Position numbers and translations under genes: made by a program
Shown here: positions 3,974 to 50,981 of the stretch, one piece after another
Layout: each line of letters opens with the position of its first letter
Numbering within the stretch: position 1 is the first letter of the stretch
Notes under the pieces: generated by a model
What the model was told of the DNA's origin: nothing
What the model saw: only the letters and a program-made list of their open reading frames with translations
Databases searched by the model: none
Assembly (NCBI RefSeq): GCF_014337925.2
Contig: NZ_CP143423.1
Location: forward strand, 1,022,501 to 1,086,500
Direction: 5' to 3'
Length of the DNA: 64,000 bases
Source: Roseobacter fucihabitans
GTDB lineage: Bacteria > Pseudomonadota > Alphaproteobacteria > Rhodobacterales > Rhodobacteraceae

Positions 3974-5503
3974 ATGCGAACCACGGTCACCTCCTTGTTT
4001 TCAGATCACCCCGCCGACGCGCCCGCCTTTGGAGCGCCGGAGCGCGCTTGGATGAGCTATGGGGGCTTGCGCGCATTATCCGCGGAAGTCACCGCGTCGC
4101 TACAGGGTATGGGGATCGGCAAGGGCGATAGGGTTGCCATCGTGCTGCCCAATGGGCCGGAAATGGCGGCGGCCTTTGTGACCGTGGCGCAGGTGGCGAC
4201 CACGGCGCCGCTGAACCCGGCTTACCGCGAAGAAGAATACGAATTTTATCTCTCCGACCTCAGGGCCAAGGCCCTTTTGGTCACAGCCGATTATGACGGC
4301 CCGGCCCTGAGTGCCGCGCAGAAATCGGGCATGGCAATCATCCGTTTGCATGTTCCAGAAGGCGCGCCTGCGGGGTATTTCACGTTGAGTTCAGACGCTA
4401 TGGGCAGCGCGGCACCGGACGCGGTGACGGCGGATGACATCGCGTTGATCCTGCATACCTCCGGCACCACATCGCGCCCCAAGATCGTGCCGCTTTTGCA
4501 CTCCAACGTGGCTGCTTCTGCCGAACATATCCGCGCGTCGTTGGAATTAACCGCCGATGACCGCTGCATGAACGTCATGCCGTTGTTTCACATCCACGGG
4601 CTGATTGCCGCCGTCACGGCGTCTTTGGCAGCGGGGGGGTCGATCTGGTGCGCGCCGGGCTTTGACGCCCTGCGGTTTTTCGGCTGGATGAAAGAGGCCA
4701 GGCCGACCTGGTACACCGCCGTGCCGACCATGCATCAGGCGATCCTGAGCCGTGCCAAACGCAATGCCGATATCATCGCCGACACGAAACTGCGCTTTTT
4801 GCGCTCCTCCTCGGCCTCCTTGCCCGCACAGGTCATGGTCGCGCTGAACGACACCTTCGGCGCGCCCGTCGTTGAGGGCTACGGCATGACCGAGGCCGCG
4901 CATCAGATGGCCTCCAACCCGATTGGTGCAGGCAAACAGAAACCCGGCGCGGTGGGCGTTGAGGCTGGCCCGAAAGTGCGCATCGCCCATGAGATCGAAA
5001 ATCGTCTGATGGAAGGCACCGGTGAGGTTGTCATTTCCGGCCCCAATGTGACGCCGGGATATGAGGGCAACCCGGAGGCCAATGAGAAGAACTTCTTCAT
5101 GGATCAGGGGCAGCGCTGGTTTCGTACCGGCGATCAGGGGGCCTTTGACGCGGATGGCTATTTGATCCTGACGGGCCGCTTGAAGGAAATCATCAACCGG
5201 GGTGGCGAAAAGATCAGCCCGCTGGAGGTGGACGGCGTACTCTTGGATCATCCCGATATCGCGCAGGTCGTGACCTTTGCCGTGCCGCACCCCAAGCTCG
5301 GCGAAGAGGTTGCCGCCGCCGTTGTACTGAGCGAGGGGAGTGAGGCCAGTGAGCAGGATATACGCGCCTTTGCCGCTACGCGGATGGCTGATTTCAAGGT
5401 GCCGCGCAAGGTGATCATCATGGATGAAATTCCCAAGGGTGCCACGGGCAAGATGCAACGCATTGGTCTGGCCGAAAAGCTCGGACTGGTGGAGAAGGCC
5501 TGA
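3974..5503 (+). CDS. AMP-dependent acyl-CoA synthetase/ligase (oxalyl-CoA synthetase-like)
   Basis: This 509-residue adenylate-forming enzyme activates a carboxylate with ATP and transfers it to CoA. The motifs are in order: the phosphate-binding loop LHTSGTTSRPK, GYGMTEAAHQM, the adenosine-binding WFRTGDQGAF, the hinge GRLKEIINRGGEKISPLE and the C-terminal lysine in PKGATGKMQR. Compact length and loop sequence recall the Pcs60/AAE3 group, some of which make oxalyl-CoA, but the substrate cannot be read from sequence. A PanE-like reductase gene starts one base after its stop, so the two are probably co-transcribed. Confidence 0.85.
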   Translation: MRTTVTSLFSDHPADAPAFGAPERAWMSYGGLRALSAEVTASLQGMGIGKGDRVAIVLPNGPEMAAAFVTVAQVATTAPLNPAYREEEYEFYLSDLRAKALLVTADYDGPALSAAQKSGMAIIRLHVPEGAPAGYFTLSSDAMGSAAPDAVTADDIALILHTSGTTSRPKIVPLLHSNVAASAEHIRASLELTADDRCMNVMPLFHIHGLIAAVTASLAAGGSIWCAPGFDALRFFGWMKEARPTWYTAVPTMHQAILSRAKRNADIIADTKLRFLRSSSASLPAQVMVALNDTFGAPVVEGYGMTEAAHQMASNPIGAGKQKPGAVGVEAGPKVRIAHEIENRLMEGTGEVVISGPNVTPGYEGNPEANEKNFFMDQGQRWFRTGDQGAFDADGYLILTGRLKEIINRGGEKISPLEVDGVLLDHPDIAQVVTFAVPHPKLGEEVAAAVVLSEGSEASEQDIRAFAATRMADFKVPRKVIIMDEIPKGATGKMQRIGLAEKLGLVEKA

Positions 5504-31253: not shown

Positions 31254-32315
31254 TTGAGTGATCCCTTTTTGACATTGGCAAAATCCGGTCACAGTGACCA
31301 AATGCACTCTATGCCTCAAGGTCAACAGTTCCAGCTTAAACACGCGTTCGATACGGCGTTTGCCCAATACCAAGAAACGATGGGTGAGCCGTTTCCCGTG
31401 GTGCCTGATTTCGAGCGCGTCGAGGATTCTGATTTCTGGGCTGTCGCCGATATGGACGGCGATATGTTCCGCATTCGAGTTAGCACTGGGGCGGTTGATA
31501 TGACCACTGCACTTTGGGAACATGTCCTTGCTGATGAGGGCCTTCAAGGCGGCATAGGTCTACCGTTATCGGCAACCGCCGACGAGATGATACACCTGAG
31601 CCTCGTGTGGCTGATGCTGCACGAACTGCATCATTATCAAATGGGGCATTTCGAAATTACGGGACGGTTGTGCTTGACAGAAGCGAACGTGCCTCAAGCC
31701 TATGGCGTTGTTTCTCGCGCGCCAGTTGCGCCTCCCGTTCTGGCAGGCCTCGATGAAGACGACCTTCCTAAAGTAGAACCCTGCCTCGAATTGCAGGCCG
31801 ACCACAACGCCATCGAGATGTTGCTGGATGCCTATTCAGCAGATGAATTGCCTGCCTTGCGGGCGCGGGCAACGGCGATCTCGGGCATGATAATGTTGAT
31901 CGAATGTGAGGATACCAAGAGAGACCACGCGCACTCTTCGCACCCCAAAGCGGCCACCCGCATCTTTCAACTCTTGGGCCATGTTATTGAAATGCCCATG
32001 ATCCAAGCAACGCTTGCGCAGCACCATCCCAAATTGGAAATTGATCGCAACATCCCATCCTATGAAGAACAAAGCGCCTTTAATCGAGAGGTCGCCATTC
32101 CGACGTTTCTGGACACTATGACTCTCGCCATGGTTGCCAAGGCTGAAACCATACGCGACGACCTCGGCGAACCACAGGACTTCTTCCAAGATATACAAAT
32201 CGCCAAACTGGCTGCCCTTGAACATCTTGACGCCCTCGCAACTGCGGGTGCCATTCAATGGGCGGATTTGATGACCCTCAATTCAAGAATACTGCGATTA
32301 TTGGAAATTCGATAA
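31254..32315 (+). CDS. HExxH metallopeptidase-like protein
   Basis: This cytoplasmic protein of up to 353 residues carries the zinc motif LMLHELHHYQMGHF (His123, Glu124, His127). A downstream acidic ELQADHNAIEML could give the third ligand, the pattern of gluzincin-like peptidases. The rest is helical with no membrane segment. The start is uncertain: TTG 31,254 gives the longest form, while ATG 31,302 follows a TTGACA element (31,269) and a GGTCAC-A-GTGACC palindrome (31,287-31,299). It lies beside the TrlF-like ATPase and could be a toxin-like effector or a regulator-cleaving protease. Confidence 0.55.
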   Translation: MSDPFLTLAKSGHSDQMHSMPQGQQFQLKHAFDTAFAQYQETMGEPFPVVPDFERVEDSDFWAVADMDGDMFRIRVSTGAVDMTTALWEHVLADEGLQGGIGLPLSATADEMIHLSLVWLMLHELHHYQMGHFEITGRLCLTEANVPQAYGVVSRAPVAPPVLAGLDEDDLPKVEPCLELQADHNAIEMLLDAYSADELPALRARATAISGMIMLIECEDTKRDHAHSSHPKAATRIFQLLGHVIEMPMIQATLAQHHPKLEIDRNIPSYEEQSAFNREVAIPTFLDTMTLAMVAKAETIRDDLGEPQDFFQDIQIAKLAALEHLDALATAGAIQWADLMTLNSRILRLLEIR

Positions 32316-48239: not shown

Positions 48240-48918
48240 CACGTGATGATTGCGCGGGAGGGCTTTGAGGTGAACCACAAGAAAGTGCGGCGCATCTATC
48301 GTGAAGAGAGAAGCTTCAGGTGTGTCGCAGGGGTGGCAGGAAGCGCGCGTTGGGAACGAGGAAGCCAATGGCATTGCCCAACGGACCGAACCAGCATTGG
48401 TCGTTGGATTTCGTGTCTGACGCGCTGACAGATGGACGTCGGTTTCGCATTTTGGCAGTTGTCGATGGCTTCAGCCGCGAGAACTTGGTGCTGGTGGCCG
48501 ACACGTCGCTGTCTGGTCAACGGTCGCGCGTGAACTGGATCAGATCATTACTGAACGCGGCATGCCAACGACGATTGTATCGGACAACGGTACCGAGTTC
48601 ACCAGCATGGCGATCCTCTCAAATGGGTTCAGGATACCGGCATTGACTGGCACTATATCGCGCCCGGAAGGCCCCGGCAGAACGGTTTCATTGAAAGCTT
48701 CAACGGCAAGCTGCGCCCCTCTCGTGCATGTAAACATGCACTGCCGGGCAGTGGATGAATGCCTCAACGAAACGCTGTTTGGTGCTTTAGGCGATGCTCG
48801 CAAAACGCTCGAGGAATGGCAGGAGGATTACAACTGGCAAAGACCACATTCAGGCTCGGGCAACCTGACCCCGATGGAATTCTCGCACAGAAAGGCGATG
48901 GACAAAATGGCCGCCTAA
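48240..48918 (+). pseudogene. IS3-family transposase orfB remnant (copy 1)
   Basis: Pieces in three frames rebuild an IS3-type DDE transposase: [81 protein letters not shown]. Frame breaks occur near 48,315, 48,515, 48,620 and 48,717. The last is a clean 37-bp insertion of a palindromic element (48,717-48,753) between the codons for GKLR and DECLNE. The 5' part of the IS is absent. It abuts the decapitated Sel1 gene. Confidence 0.82.
48717..48753 (+). repeat. Palindromic miniature element, copy A (37 bp)
   Basis: Starts CCCTCTCGTG, has the hairpin TGCATGT-AA-ACATGCA, and ends CTGCCGGGCAGTG. It interrupts the IS3 transposase between the codons for GKLR and DECLNE, so its borders are fixed to within a base or two. 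Confidence 0.75.
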
Positions 48919-48957
48919 CGCCAAAGATCTAACCCAAAGGATTCCGCGCAAAGCCGG

Positions 48958-49758
48958 ATGAGACTTGGGGATCAGGGCAAGGTTGCTGCAGCTCTCTTCA
49001 GAAATTGGCAGAAAATTGCTGAATCCAATCGACTCTTTTTACAAGCAACACGCGTTTTCCCTTTCTCGGCTGCAAGTATTACTGGTCTTACGAATGGGGG
49101 ATATAACCGGAGGCTGAGAGAGTTTCTGCGGGTAGAGAATATAGGCGATGAGGAAGCGGGCGTGTCGAGCCATATGATAAGAAAGCTCTATGCCAACTTT
49201 GCTTACATTACGGATCCGCGCCTTGTCGAAGTGCTGCGTGTTCAATACGGCCATTCATCGTTGGCGATGACCTATCAGTACACCCACAATCCTAAACAGC
49301 TTGACGCAGTAGGTGAAGTCGAGCGTGCTTTGACGCTGCGACGAATGAAAGAGCTTATACATGGTGAACCGGTCGCTGGTAGAGCTGCTTCTGCACTTGC
49401 CATAGATAACGAATTCCAGCAGTTGAAGGCCGTAACGAAAGATGGCGGCCAACAAATTTGGATCGAAACCGAAAAATGGATTCAGAAACACGACCTGCGC
49501 TTTCACGAATGTTCTCATGGAGGATGTTTAAATGTTGCTCCATCCGAGATGCGTTGCAAAGAACTAAACGATACGCCGGAGTACTTGGATGATCATGAAC
49601 CTGATCTAAGCAATCGCTCAGCGGGAACATGCATCGGCTGCAAAAATTTCATCATGATGAGCTCACACAGAGCTTTCTGGATCGAACGATATCGAGTGGG
49701 TAAGCAATTCATGGAGAGAGTTGGTCTTACTTTTCCGACCAGTTTGCAGCCTTGTTAA
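48958..49758 (+). pseudogene. Tyrosine recombinase C-terminal fragment with cysteine-rich tail
   Basis: The 266-codon frame has the back half of a phage-type integrase: SSHMIRKLYANFAY with a catalytic Arg, then VQYGHSSLAMTYQYTHNPKQ with the His region and the Tyr nucleophile. The N-terminal half, including the first catalytic Arg, is missing; IS DNA precedes it. Unusually, about 130 residues follow the nucleophile, including cysteine pairs (HECSHGGCLN, GTCIGCKNF) that may bind zinc. A full-length relative would be an accessory-type recombinase; this copy should be inactive. Confidence 0.65.
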
Positions 49759-50004
49759 GATGGATCAGGGTTTCATTTAGGCTGCCAATCTCATTGGTTC
49801 TGTTTTGCTGACATAGGCCTCATTGGGGGTCAATATGCCGCGGGTCGAATGTGGGCGCTCAGAGTTGTAATAGGTCAGCCATTTGCTGATCCCCGCCCGC
49901 ATTTCTGAACCCGCCTCAAAGGCGTTCAGGTAGACGCATTCGTATTTCAGTGATCGCCAAAGCCTTTCAATCATGCGATTGTCCCGCCAGGCAGCTTTGC
50001 CATC

Positions 50005-50043
50005 TATTACCGTCAGTGCATTGCGTAGCAATGTCACGAGAGG
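50005..50043 (-). repeat. Palindromic miniature element, copy C (39 bp)
   Basis: On the minus strand it reads CCTCTCGTGA, hairpin CATTGC-TAC-GCAATG, then CACTGACGG and a divergent end. It adds 13 codons in frame inside the transposase core, between Met and Asp of a conserved SMDGK-type motif. Confidence 0.7.
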
Positions 50044-50520
50044 CATGCTGATCTTGATCTTTGCATCCGTGAGCACGTCGATCCAAGCACCACTGGTAAA
50101 TTGGCTGCCTTGGTCCGTATTAAATATCTCTGGCCTGCCGTGCTTTGCCAGTGCCTCTTTCAAGGCTTCAACGCAGAAGTCCGCGTCCATGCTGTTGGAC
50201 AACCGCCAAGCAAGGGCTTTGCGACTGTACCAATCCATGATTGCCACCAGATACAGAAAGCCACGCCGCATCGGGATGTAGGTAATGTCAGCACACCATA
50301 CCTGGTTCGGGCGGTCGATCACGGCTTTCCTAAGCAAATACGGCCAGATCTTATGCTGGGGATGTTTCTTGCTCGTGTTGGGTTCCTGATAGATCGGGAC
50401 CAAACGCATGAGCCGCATGAGAGGGCGCACGCAATGGCGACCGCATTTGTGGTTGTTGCGTTGCATGCACCGCGCCATTTGACGTGACCCCTACCATGGC
50501 GTTTCGAGGAATTGCTTATC

Positions 50521-50561
50521 CCCTCTCGGGATCATGCTTCGCATAACCCTGCCGGGCAGTG
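50521..50561 (+). repeat. Palindromic miniature element, copy B (41 bp)
   Basis: Reads CCCTCTCGGG, hairpin ATGC-TTC-GCAT, and ends CTGCCGGGCAGTG. Removing it restores the transposase codons for EIIDKQFLETPW exactly, so the insertion is clean. Its 41 bp shift the frame. Confidence 0.75.
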
Positions 50562-50724
50562 AATGATTTCCATGAACCGTAGGTTCTCAGCGCTCTCCCC
50601 CTTCGGTTCATAGTACAAGTGGGATCGGGTCAGCGTCAGCAGCTTGCATTGACGGCGTACACTCAGCTTGTGCTCCTTACTCACCATTTTTGCCTCGCGT
50701 CCCGAGCAACTGATGCGAGGCATC

Positions 50725-50765
50725 CACTGCCCGACAGGCGCATGCGCAGCATGCTGCCGGGAGGG
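50725..50765 (-). repeat. Palindromic miniature element, copy D (41 bp)
   Basis: On the minus strand it reads CCCTCCCGG, hairpin GCATGC-TGC-GCATGC, and ends CTGTCGGGCAGTG followed by GATG. It lies at the border between the IS3 copy 2 start and the IS256 fragment. Confidence 0.7.
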
Positions 50766-50981
50766 GGCAATGACGTCGCAGTGCCCATCGACATTTCGCG
50801 TGACCGCGATGACAGTTTCGAACCAGAACTAATCCAGAAGGGTCAAACCCGGATCGACGGGATGGATGACAAGATTATCGGGCTCAATGCCGCCGGGTTG
50901 TCGACCCGCGATATTCGCGCCCACCTTGAAGAAGTTTATGGCTTGAAGGTTATGCCTCAGATTAAATACAAAACGCTTTAG
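50766..50981 (+). pseudogene. IS256 (Mutator)-family transposase fragment
   Basis: About 65 codons resemble the early part of IS256-type transposases: NDVAVPIDISRDRDDSFEPE, then KIIGLNAAGLSTRDIRAHLE and VYGLKVMPQ. The frame then runs into unrelated sequence and stops at 50,981. The catalytic core is absent. Palindromic element D sits directly before it. Confidence 0.75.

What the first reader, a model, noticed from the sequence alone, without database searches (positions are those of the whole stretch)
48717..50765. Four copies of a 37-41 bp palindromic miniature element in and beside IS remnants
Seen: copies A (48,717-48,753), B (50,521-50,561), C (50,005-50,043, minus) and D (50,725-50,765, minus) share CCCTCTCG-like starts, a central hairpin and CTGCCGGGCAGTG ends. 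Removing A, B or C restores transposase codons exactly. Inferred: a small mobile palindrome, comparable in style to Rickettsia palindromic elements or REPINs.
Basis: seen in the sequence. Interest (0 to 1): 0.85.

Follow-up and report, generated by a model that had tools for sequence, protein, structure and literature searches.

The report
Tiny hairpins nested in transposase genes
Marine bacteria of the Rhodobacter group carry a family of roughly 40-letter hairpin-shaped DNA inserts that sit almost only inside the genes of other jumping DNA, which they interrupt exactly, and the means by which they move and keep to those genes is not known.

Summary
A, B, C and D belong to one family of hairpin elements (36-46 nt; CCCTCTC-stem-loop-stem-TGCCGGGCARTG). 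The own genome gives 148 covariance-model matches at E<=1; 77 of 198 family genomes, each listed as a different genus, have at least one. Stems covary. Nine of ten insertions in three IS elements align with uninterrupted homologues: exact, both orientations, no target duplication; 141 of 287 sites have an empty homologous site among fetched loci. The downstream target is GATG-like. Surroundings are IS-like: 89 of 95 own sites match foreign element-bearing or IS regions, against 7 of 150 control windows; Pfam names nearly all transposases. REP tags are absent; Y1 transposases are in only 19 of 198 genomes. Identical elements occur at unrelated sites, so the palindrome itself moves. Best reading: a non-autonomous hairpin element inserted from single strands in IS200/IS605 style by an unidentified enzyme, then multiplied and spread inside IS elements. 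Why it keeps to IS elements is open. Five literature searches showed no earlier description.

The parts
48717..48753 (+). Element A, 37 nt, in the sense orientation inside an IS3-family transposase gene (GKLR|DECL)
   Evidence: the same 37-nt element beside the same IS sequence in L101 (two), L102, L113, L120, L144, L145, some of them truncated
50005..50043 (-). Element C, 39 nt, sense orientation inside an IS3-family transposase gene (ISM|DGK)
   Evidence: 39-nt gap against element-free homologues L161 and L162 (seen on L117)
50521..50561 (+). Element B, 41 nt, antisense inside the same transposase gene (MEII|DKQF)
   Evidence: 41-nt gap against L161 and L162 (seen on L117)
50725..50765 (-). 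Element D, 41 nt, sense, inside the same IS; this IS copy is truncated just outside it
   Evidence: site seen whole in L117:2922-2962; empty in L161 and L162
48218..48982 (+). Truncated copy of the IS3-family element that carries A; it also has two frameshifts (own reading)
   Evidence: repeat matches 48218-48979/48982; longer form in L102:2381-3682
49717..50768 (-). Truncated copy of the IS3-family element that carries B, C and D; 100% identical to parts of L117, L123, L140
   Evidence: homologous to IS3 elements of Roseovarius and Phaeobacter plasmids

Best explanation
A-D belong to a Rhodobacterales-wide family of non-autonomous mobile hairpins of 36-46 nt. SHOWN: conserved ends, covarying stem, exact insertion without target duplication next to a GATG-like target (5'-CATC|element when read the other way), both orientations, identical copies at unrelated sites, and near confinement to IS transposase genes. 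INFERRED: an enzyme that recognises the hairpin in single-stranded DNA (an HUH/Y1-like enzyme, working like IS200/IS605) joins it 3' of the short target; the enzyme need not be in each genome, because once in an IS the hairpin is copied and carried between genomes with the IS. The transposase gene is interrupted, so such IS copies probably move with a transposase supplied in trans. Confinement to IS elements would come partly from this hitch-hiking and, I think, partly from a preference of the insertion process.
For: Covariation on 15 sequences: 7 of 12 pairs changed on both sides; 0 of 500 shuffles reach four of the five measures, 92 of 500 reach the fifth, further pair types. Empty sites: 9 of 10 inserts in three IS elements; 141 of 287 sites. 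No flanking repeats beyond chance among 270 sites. Target preference over 272 sites: G .73, A .70, T .60, G .63. IS location. Target-like sites are no rarer in two host genes of the window (57 in 2.7 kb; pyruvate dehydrogenase by own reading) than in six transposase genes (99 in about 7.3 kb), so the target word does not explain the IS location. Identical elements at unrelated sites: 6 pairs listed, 5 after leaving out one pair of fragments of one IS. Element-bearing IS elements are often present in several near-identical copies.
Against: No cognate enzyme was found. PF01797 is in 19 of 198 genomes and elements are in 77; 64 of the 77 have no Y1 match. PF04986 (Y2) is in 21 of 198. I saw no larger relative with the same ends and a gene inside, but looked for one only around the own Y1 genes. 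DNA folds are modest (z -2.6, -2.1, -1.7, -0.8). Eight inserts sit in one 1.8 kb IS21 piece with few other lesions, which undirected insertion plus hitch-hiking explains poorly.
Confidence: 0.5

Rival explanations
1. Insertion is directed at IS or repeated DNA: the element homes to IS elements (a hyperparasite), or the host uses it to silence them.
For: 89 of 95 own and 77 of 92 foreign element regions are IS-like by homology against 7 of 150 and 4 of 84 controls, although target words are no rarer in host genes. Eight inserts in one IS21 piece. The same 41-nt element at the same site in three IS copies of one genome whose synonymous divergence is 0.46-1.03. Three pairs of identical elements at homologous sites with unlike flanks in the own genome, one of them A's element in L101 and L113.
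Against: No directing machinery found. No match between the variable stem and the target flanks in 267 sites. Amplification and transfer of IS elements enrich for IS-borne copies anyway.
Confidence: 0.25
2. The inserts are phenotypically silent: removed from mRNA, or bypassed by ribosomes, so the transposase still works (an intron-like or byp-like element).
For: Removal restores frames: 46 of 191 foreign sites have coding on both sides in one frame against 10 and 13 with one or two more bases removed; own sites 16 of 106 against 7 and 2. IS1182: three copies match the whole 1645-base query and two more all but its ends, at a rounded 100%, both inserts included; the next best is 81% over 532 bases (40 of 88 candidates scored); 478 codons are open after removal. 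Weak sense bias, 41 to 21.
Against: Both orientations are common, for example four of five antisense in L107 and both antisense in the Dinoroseobacter IS. Several multi-copy carriers have other killing lesions. Empty homologues up to 96.7% identical mean that purifying selection can predate the insertions.
Confidence: 0.1
3. Members of the REP/REPIN group moved by RAYT transposases, with an unusual location.
For: Size, hairpin, imperfect palindrome; four of five own Y1 proteins have a distant likeness to the RAYT model, below its cut-off.
Against: No GTAG or GTGG in the terminal 8 nt of 270 elements; Y1 absent from most genomes with elements; not extragenic.
Confidence: 0.08
4. Local duplication or recombination of IS remnants, no mobile element.
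For: Many copies do ride on copied IS elements; some sit at deletion joints formed between two elements.
Against: 95 flank-defined sites in the fetched own loci, some of them joints or truncations, exact empty sites, and identical elements at unrelated sites.
Confidence: 0.03

Closest known systems
IS200/IS605-family minimal derivatives (single-strand, hairpin-recognising Y1 transposition; family knowledge recalled)
   Same: Hairpin, exact insertion, no target duplication, short target on one side
   Different: No cognate Y1 found; Y1 absent from most genomes that hold elements; one hairpin rather than two ends; almost only in IS elements
REP / REPIN (GTAG-tagged) and CGTC-tagged palindromic repeats (PMC3733652; abstract passages, other passages and section 6 seen)
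   Same: Short palindromes in many copies (the paper gives 20-40 bp); it reports that CGTC repeats lack a dedicated transposase and predominate in Alphaproteobacteria
   Different: No GTAG tag; CGTC is only one of several flanking target words (GACG downstream in 21 of 270 sites); location in IS genes rather than mainly extragenic
Rickettsia palindromic elements (recalled; RPE-4 and RPE-6 are equated with CGTC repeats in PMC3733652)
   Same: Palindromic insertion into coding sequence
   Different: RPEs are described as kept in frame in host proteins (recalled); here lengths break frame freely and the genes are transposases
Mobile translational bypass elements (byps) of yeast mitochondria (recalled)
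   Same: About 40 nt, exact insertions into genes
   Different: Both orientations here; matching take-off and landing codons were not tested formally and none was noticed
MITEs of DDE transposons (recalled)
   Same: Short, non-autonomous, multi-copy
   Different: No target duplication

Membership tests
REP/REPIN with RAYT | GTAG (or GTGG) tag at one end | tested here: not met
   0 of 270 elements within the terminal 8 nt
REP/REPIN with RAYT | Cognate RAYT transposase in the genome | tested here: not met
   Own Y1 proteins are NF033573 (IS200); NF047646 below cut-off in 4 and unmatched in 1 of the 5 scanned; PF01797 in 19 of 198 genomes
REP/REPIN with RAYT | Mostly extragenic | tested here: not met
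IS200/IS605-type non-autonomous element | Hairpin with conserved structure | tested here: met
   the structure was read from the same 15 sequences; DNA fold support modest
IS200/IS605-type non-autonomous element | Insertion without target duplication | tested here: met
IS200/IS605-type non-autonomous element | Short specific target beside one end | tested here: met
   (0.84, 0.75, 0.56, 0.52 bits at four downstream positions)
IS200/IS605-type non-autonomous element | Ends shared with an autonomous Y1 element | tested here: not met
   Own genome only: no model match at E <= 1 in L146, L157, L159, L160; motif scan of seven Y1 loci; in L104, L142, L143 an element interrupts the Y1 gene. Not tested in other genomes
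Rickettsia palindromic element | In-frame insert kept in host protein-coding genes | tested here: not met
   Lengths fall in all three frame classes; genes are transposases
CGTC-tagged repeats | Terminal CGTC, TGTC or CCTC | tested here: inconclusive
   CGTC in the terminal 8 nt of 1 of 270; the variants TGTC and CCTC were not counted, and CCTC is part of this element's CCCTCTC end
CGTC-tagged repeats | 8-9 bp stem beginning with AT, and CCA tail | not tested
   not compared formally; figure 2 of the paper is not held
Intron or translational bypass element | One orientation relative to the gene | tested here: not met
   41 sense and 21 antisense; antisense pair in Dinoroseobacter
Intron or translational bypass element | Removed from RNA or skipped | not testable with these tools
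   needs RNA or protein data
MITE of a DDE transposon | Target site duplication | tested here: not met

The most novel reading that the evidence does not exclude
A dedicated process inserts these hairpins specifically into IS transposase genes across many IS families: either a hyperparasite of transposons that homes from IS to IS, or a host system that silences repeated mobile DNA by peppering it with hairpins, reaching eight in one IS piece.
Probability: 0.25. Interest if true: 0.92.

Novelty: new variant of a known kind. Interest (0 to 1): 0.62.

Why it matters
It describes a very small mobile element, common in an ecologically important order, with clean empty and filled sites, clear target rules, and confinement to other transposons. 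That makes testable who moves short palindromes when no RAYT is present, and whether cells or selfish elements target IS elements specifically. It also warns that many Rhodobacterales transposase pseudogenes are broken by one recognisable insert.

Tried and rejected
Guide hypothesis (variable stem matching the target flanks): no consistent excess over permuted pairing in 267 sites; the largest departure is right-flank 4-mers within 12 bases, 236 against 194 (sd 13), which vanishes for 5- and 6-mers. Y1 and Y2 transposases as the obvious mover: only weak association with element presence (elements in 13 of 19 genomes with Y1 against 64 of 179 without, p 0.011; 13 of 21 with Y2 against 64 of 177, p 0.03), and an IS427-like query is associated too (56 of 113 against 21 of 85, p 0.0004), so IS load alone could explain it. 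Six-frame longest-ORF test of frame restoration was uninformative (longest with exact removal in 116 of 297 sites, with 1 or 2 further bases removed in 88 and 93) because spurious ORFs are long in GC-rich DNA; replaced by a codon-usage test. Purifying selection in element-bearing genes (dN/dS 0.069 for istB, saturated dS for istA; 0.04-0.2 for IS427-like) was at first read as function despite the insert; I withdrew that because empty homologues are often close and because three diverged copies with one identical element speak for recent repeated insertion. Sequence-only model R2 was built and not used. At gathering thresholds Rfam gives one match in the window, a tRNA. Papers: five searches; of PMC3733652 I saw passages and section 6, other papers as search listings only; none of this showed a description of the element.

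Limits and dropped rows: 5 of the 216 model matches (E 0.73 or more) were dropped; 60 of 141 foreign and 57 of 106 own sites gave no coding fragment and were not scanned; those calls do not say how many members matched nothing, and one search shows 25 of 33 families; one search stopped at 120 stretches and listed 80; one search scored 150 of 3760 candidates, only 33 per genome, so its per-genome numbers are lower bounds (the own genome shows 33 there). The 191 foreign sites come from the GTDB loci, 29 unnamed-genome loci and 10 viral-collection loci. In one search, 92 of the 120 GTDB loci had a usable element region and 84 a control; 5 element regions and 5 control regions also matched a control region of another locus.

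Full report
OBSERVATION. The four palindromes are present at the stated places. A is 37 nt, C 39, B and D 41. They are not four local copies: a gapped pattern of the two conserved ends matches 40 times in the own genome against 5 for the reversed control, and the 3' end with up to three mismatches 206 times against 23. A covariance model (R1) built from 15 sequences gives 148 matches in the genome at E <= 1 (150 of 3760 candidates were scored) and 216 in the fetched stretches plus window, of which I kept 211; by their flanks these are 95 distinct sites, some of them truncations or deletion joints. Of the 141 matches on contig C1, 140 lie in the stretches fetched, as do the 7 on C2; the one outside, at 31451, sits in the same IS630-like surroundings as L114.

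ANATOMY. In the orientation of A the element reads CCC-TCTC-[stem, often with a bulged A, 3-4 nt loop]-TGCC-GGG-CARTG. The stem varies and covaries: 96.7% of cells pair, 7 of 12 pairs have changes on both sides, none is kept through a change on one side only, and no shuffle of 500 reaches the covariation score; one measure, the number of further pair types, is reached by 92 of 500; sliding the partners lowers pairing to 32-42%. I read the structure from these same sequences, so pairing as such is partly built in; the double changes are not. The lack of one-sided G-U steps would suit a hairpin of DNA rather than RNA (inference). Among 270 distinct sites found by a regular expression, lengths run from 36 to 46, with 41 commonest.

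INSERTION. Element-free homologues on named plasmids (Roseovarius L161, Phaeobacter L162, Yoonia L163, Thioclava L164, Rhodobacteraceae SC52 L165, Phaeobacter L166) show the empty sites. In three IS elements of the own genome 9 of 10 inserts align as clean gaps, in both orientations; the tenth (L107:3635) sits at a deletion of IS sequence. Over all fetched loci, 141 of 287 sites have an empty homologous site, the closest at 96.7% identity over 61 nt. There is no direct repeat at the ends beyond chance (19, 2, 2, 0 for lengths 2-5; expected 16.9, 4.2, 1.1, 0.3). The element's 3' end is followed by a GATG-like word (G .73, A .70, T .60, G .63) and its 5' end preceded by C in .62 of 272 sites. 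Read from the other strand this is 5'-CATC|element, as in IS200/IS605 insertions, where the element goes in 3' of a short target word (recalled knowledge of that family).

WHERE THEY SIT. In both data sets the surroundings are IS transposase genes. Foreign loci came mainly from an exact pattern scan of one genome per species that stopped at 120 stretches; by the 80 titles listed nearly all are Rhodobacterales, the exceptions being two stretches of one Vreelandella contig, one Labrenzia and one Planctomicrobium record, and two named only Alphaproteobacteria (taxonomy recalled; the other 40 titles were not shown). Of 141 sites in these loci, 81 gave a coding fragment beside the element; the 76 different fragments hit rve, DDE_Tnp_1, Mutator, IS66, IS110, IS21, IS91 and IS240 families, with RelE and TraG-D_C (one member each) as the only clearly non-IS families among the 25 shown of 33. 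Own fragments (43 different, from 49 of 106 sites) gave the same picture; one fragment that hit a solute-binding protein also ends in a Mutator transposase, and one site lies in a phage-integrase-like gene. By homology alone: 77 of 92 foreign element regions share a gene family with another element region against 4 of 84 control regions from the same contigs, and 89 of 95 own sites match foreign element-bearing or plasmid IS regions against 7 of 150 control windows. Target-like sites are no rarer in two host genes of the window than in six transposase genes, so the short target does not explain this.

MOBILITY OF THE PALINDROME ITSELF. Identical elements occur at unrelated sites of the own genome: six pairs, one of which is two fragments of one IS and is left out. 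In genome G134 three IS427-like copies with synonymous divergence of 0.46 to 1.03 carry one identical 41-nt element at one site; the own genome has three pairs of identical elements at homologous sites with unlike flanks, one being A's element in L101 and L113. I read G134 as repeated recent insertion at one site or spread between IS copies, not as an old shared insertion. Yet some shared sites (L107, L109, L121) have slightly different elements and may be old.

DISTRIBUTION AND THE MISSING ENZYME. 77 of 198 same-family genomes, each listed as a different genus, have an R1 match at E <= 0.01; at most 33 candidates per genome were scored. Y1_Tnp is in 19 of the 198, and 64 of the 77 element-holding genomes have none. 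Y2_Tnp is in 21. The five own Y1 proteins scanned are IS200-type, not RAYT, and in three copies of one of them an element interrupts the gene. Either the mover is something else, or elements persist and spread in IS elements without it.

WHAT HAPPENS TO THE HOST IS. Carriers are often multi-copy: IS1182 with both inserts in three copies matching the whole query and two more matching all but its ends, with no element-free full copy found; three copies in G035, whose 86,208-base contig has the length of D. shibae pDSHI04, NC_009958.1; the IS3 of L107 with all five inserts in five loci and in truncated form in four more. Some carriers are otherwise open (IS1182, 478 codons after removal; istB with five inserts, though with a 12-nt deletion and a second palindromic insert near its start). 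Others are plainly dead (L107 lacks the end of the catalytic core; frameshifts in A's IS; a stop in L117 and in the D. shibae IS). So transposition in trans must be allowed for, and multiplicity does not prove that interrupted genes work. Exact removal joins coding frames more often than removal of one or two more bases (46 against 10 and 13 of 191 foreign sites; 16 against 7 and 2 of 106 own), as expected of exact insertion into genes.

MECHANISM AND RIVALS. Shown: mobile, exact, hairpin, target word, nearly IS-confined. Inferred: single-strand hairpin recognition by an HUH-like enzyme; hitch-hiking in IS elements. The point that hitch-hiking explains poorly is density: eight inserts in a 1.8 kb IS21 piece with few other lesions, while in the own genome only one or two of the 95 sites lie outside recognisable IS genes. 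That keeps open a process directed at IS or repeated DNA. An intron-like or bypass function is unlikely given both orientations, though a weak sense bias (41 to 21, p 0.015; by flank fragments 74 to 56, p 0.14, to 39 to 22, p 0.04) is unexplained by target words, which are equally common on both strands.

COMPARISON. REP and REPIN membership fails on tag, RAYT and location; RPE fails on frame and gene class; MITE fails on target duplication; CGTC repeats are unresolved on the tag variants and not compared on stem and tail. It works most like a minimal IS200/IS605 derivative, but no such parent was found in the own genome. No earlier description was seen in five searches of the held library.

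Noticed in passing
L147, about 4020-4063: A second kind of palindromic insert (GCGCACCTTTGGTGCG and CTCGCCAAGGGCGAG arms) breaks istB near its start in the IS21 piece with eight elements; it may be another small element family.
   Followed up: no
L145:2427-2467; L107:3635-3675; L126:2627-2667: Hybrid elements whose two flanks come from different sites: recombination between two elements seems to delete the IS stretch between them and make short non-autonomous IS forms.
   Followed up: partly
L104:2467-2507 (also L142, L143): An IS200-type Y1 transposase gene is itself interrupted by an element in three identical copies of a repeated unit of about 2 kb; a 410-base part of the unit recurs in L159.
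   Followed up: partly
window 48958-49758: Open frame of 266 aa between the two IS remnants looks like the C-terminal part of a tyrosine recombinase (own reading, not searched).
   Followed up: no
L303-L305, about 0.5 kb into the IS: IS427-like copies keep a run of A followed by G at the junction of their two reading frames, a likely programmed frameshift site (own reading; family name recalled).
   Followed up: no
L176 and L232 (Vreelandella neptunia contig): Elements in a gammaproteobacterial record; transfer or contamination not resolved.
   Followed up: no
L106, L109, L111, L115, L126, L133, L154: Short IS630-like units of about 760 bp, 90-99% alike, each with one diverged element: an apparently amplified non-autonomous IS form.
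   Followed up: no
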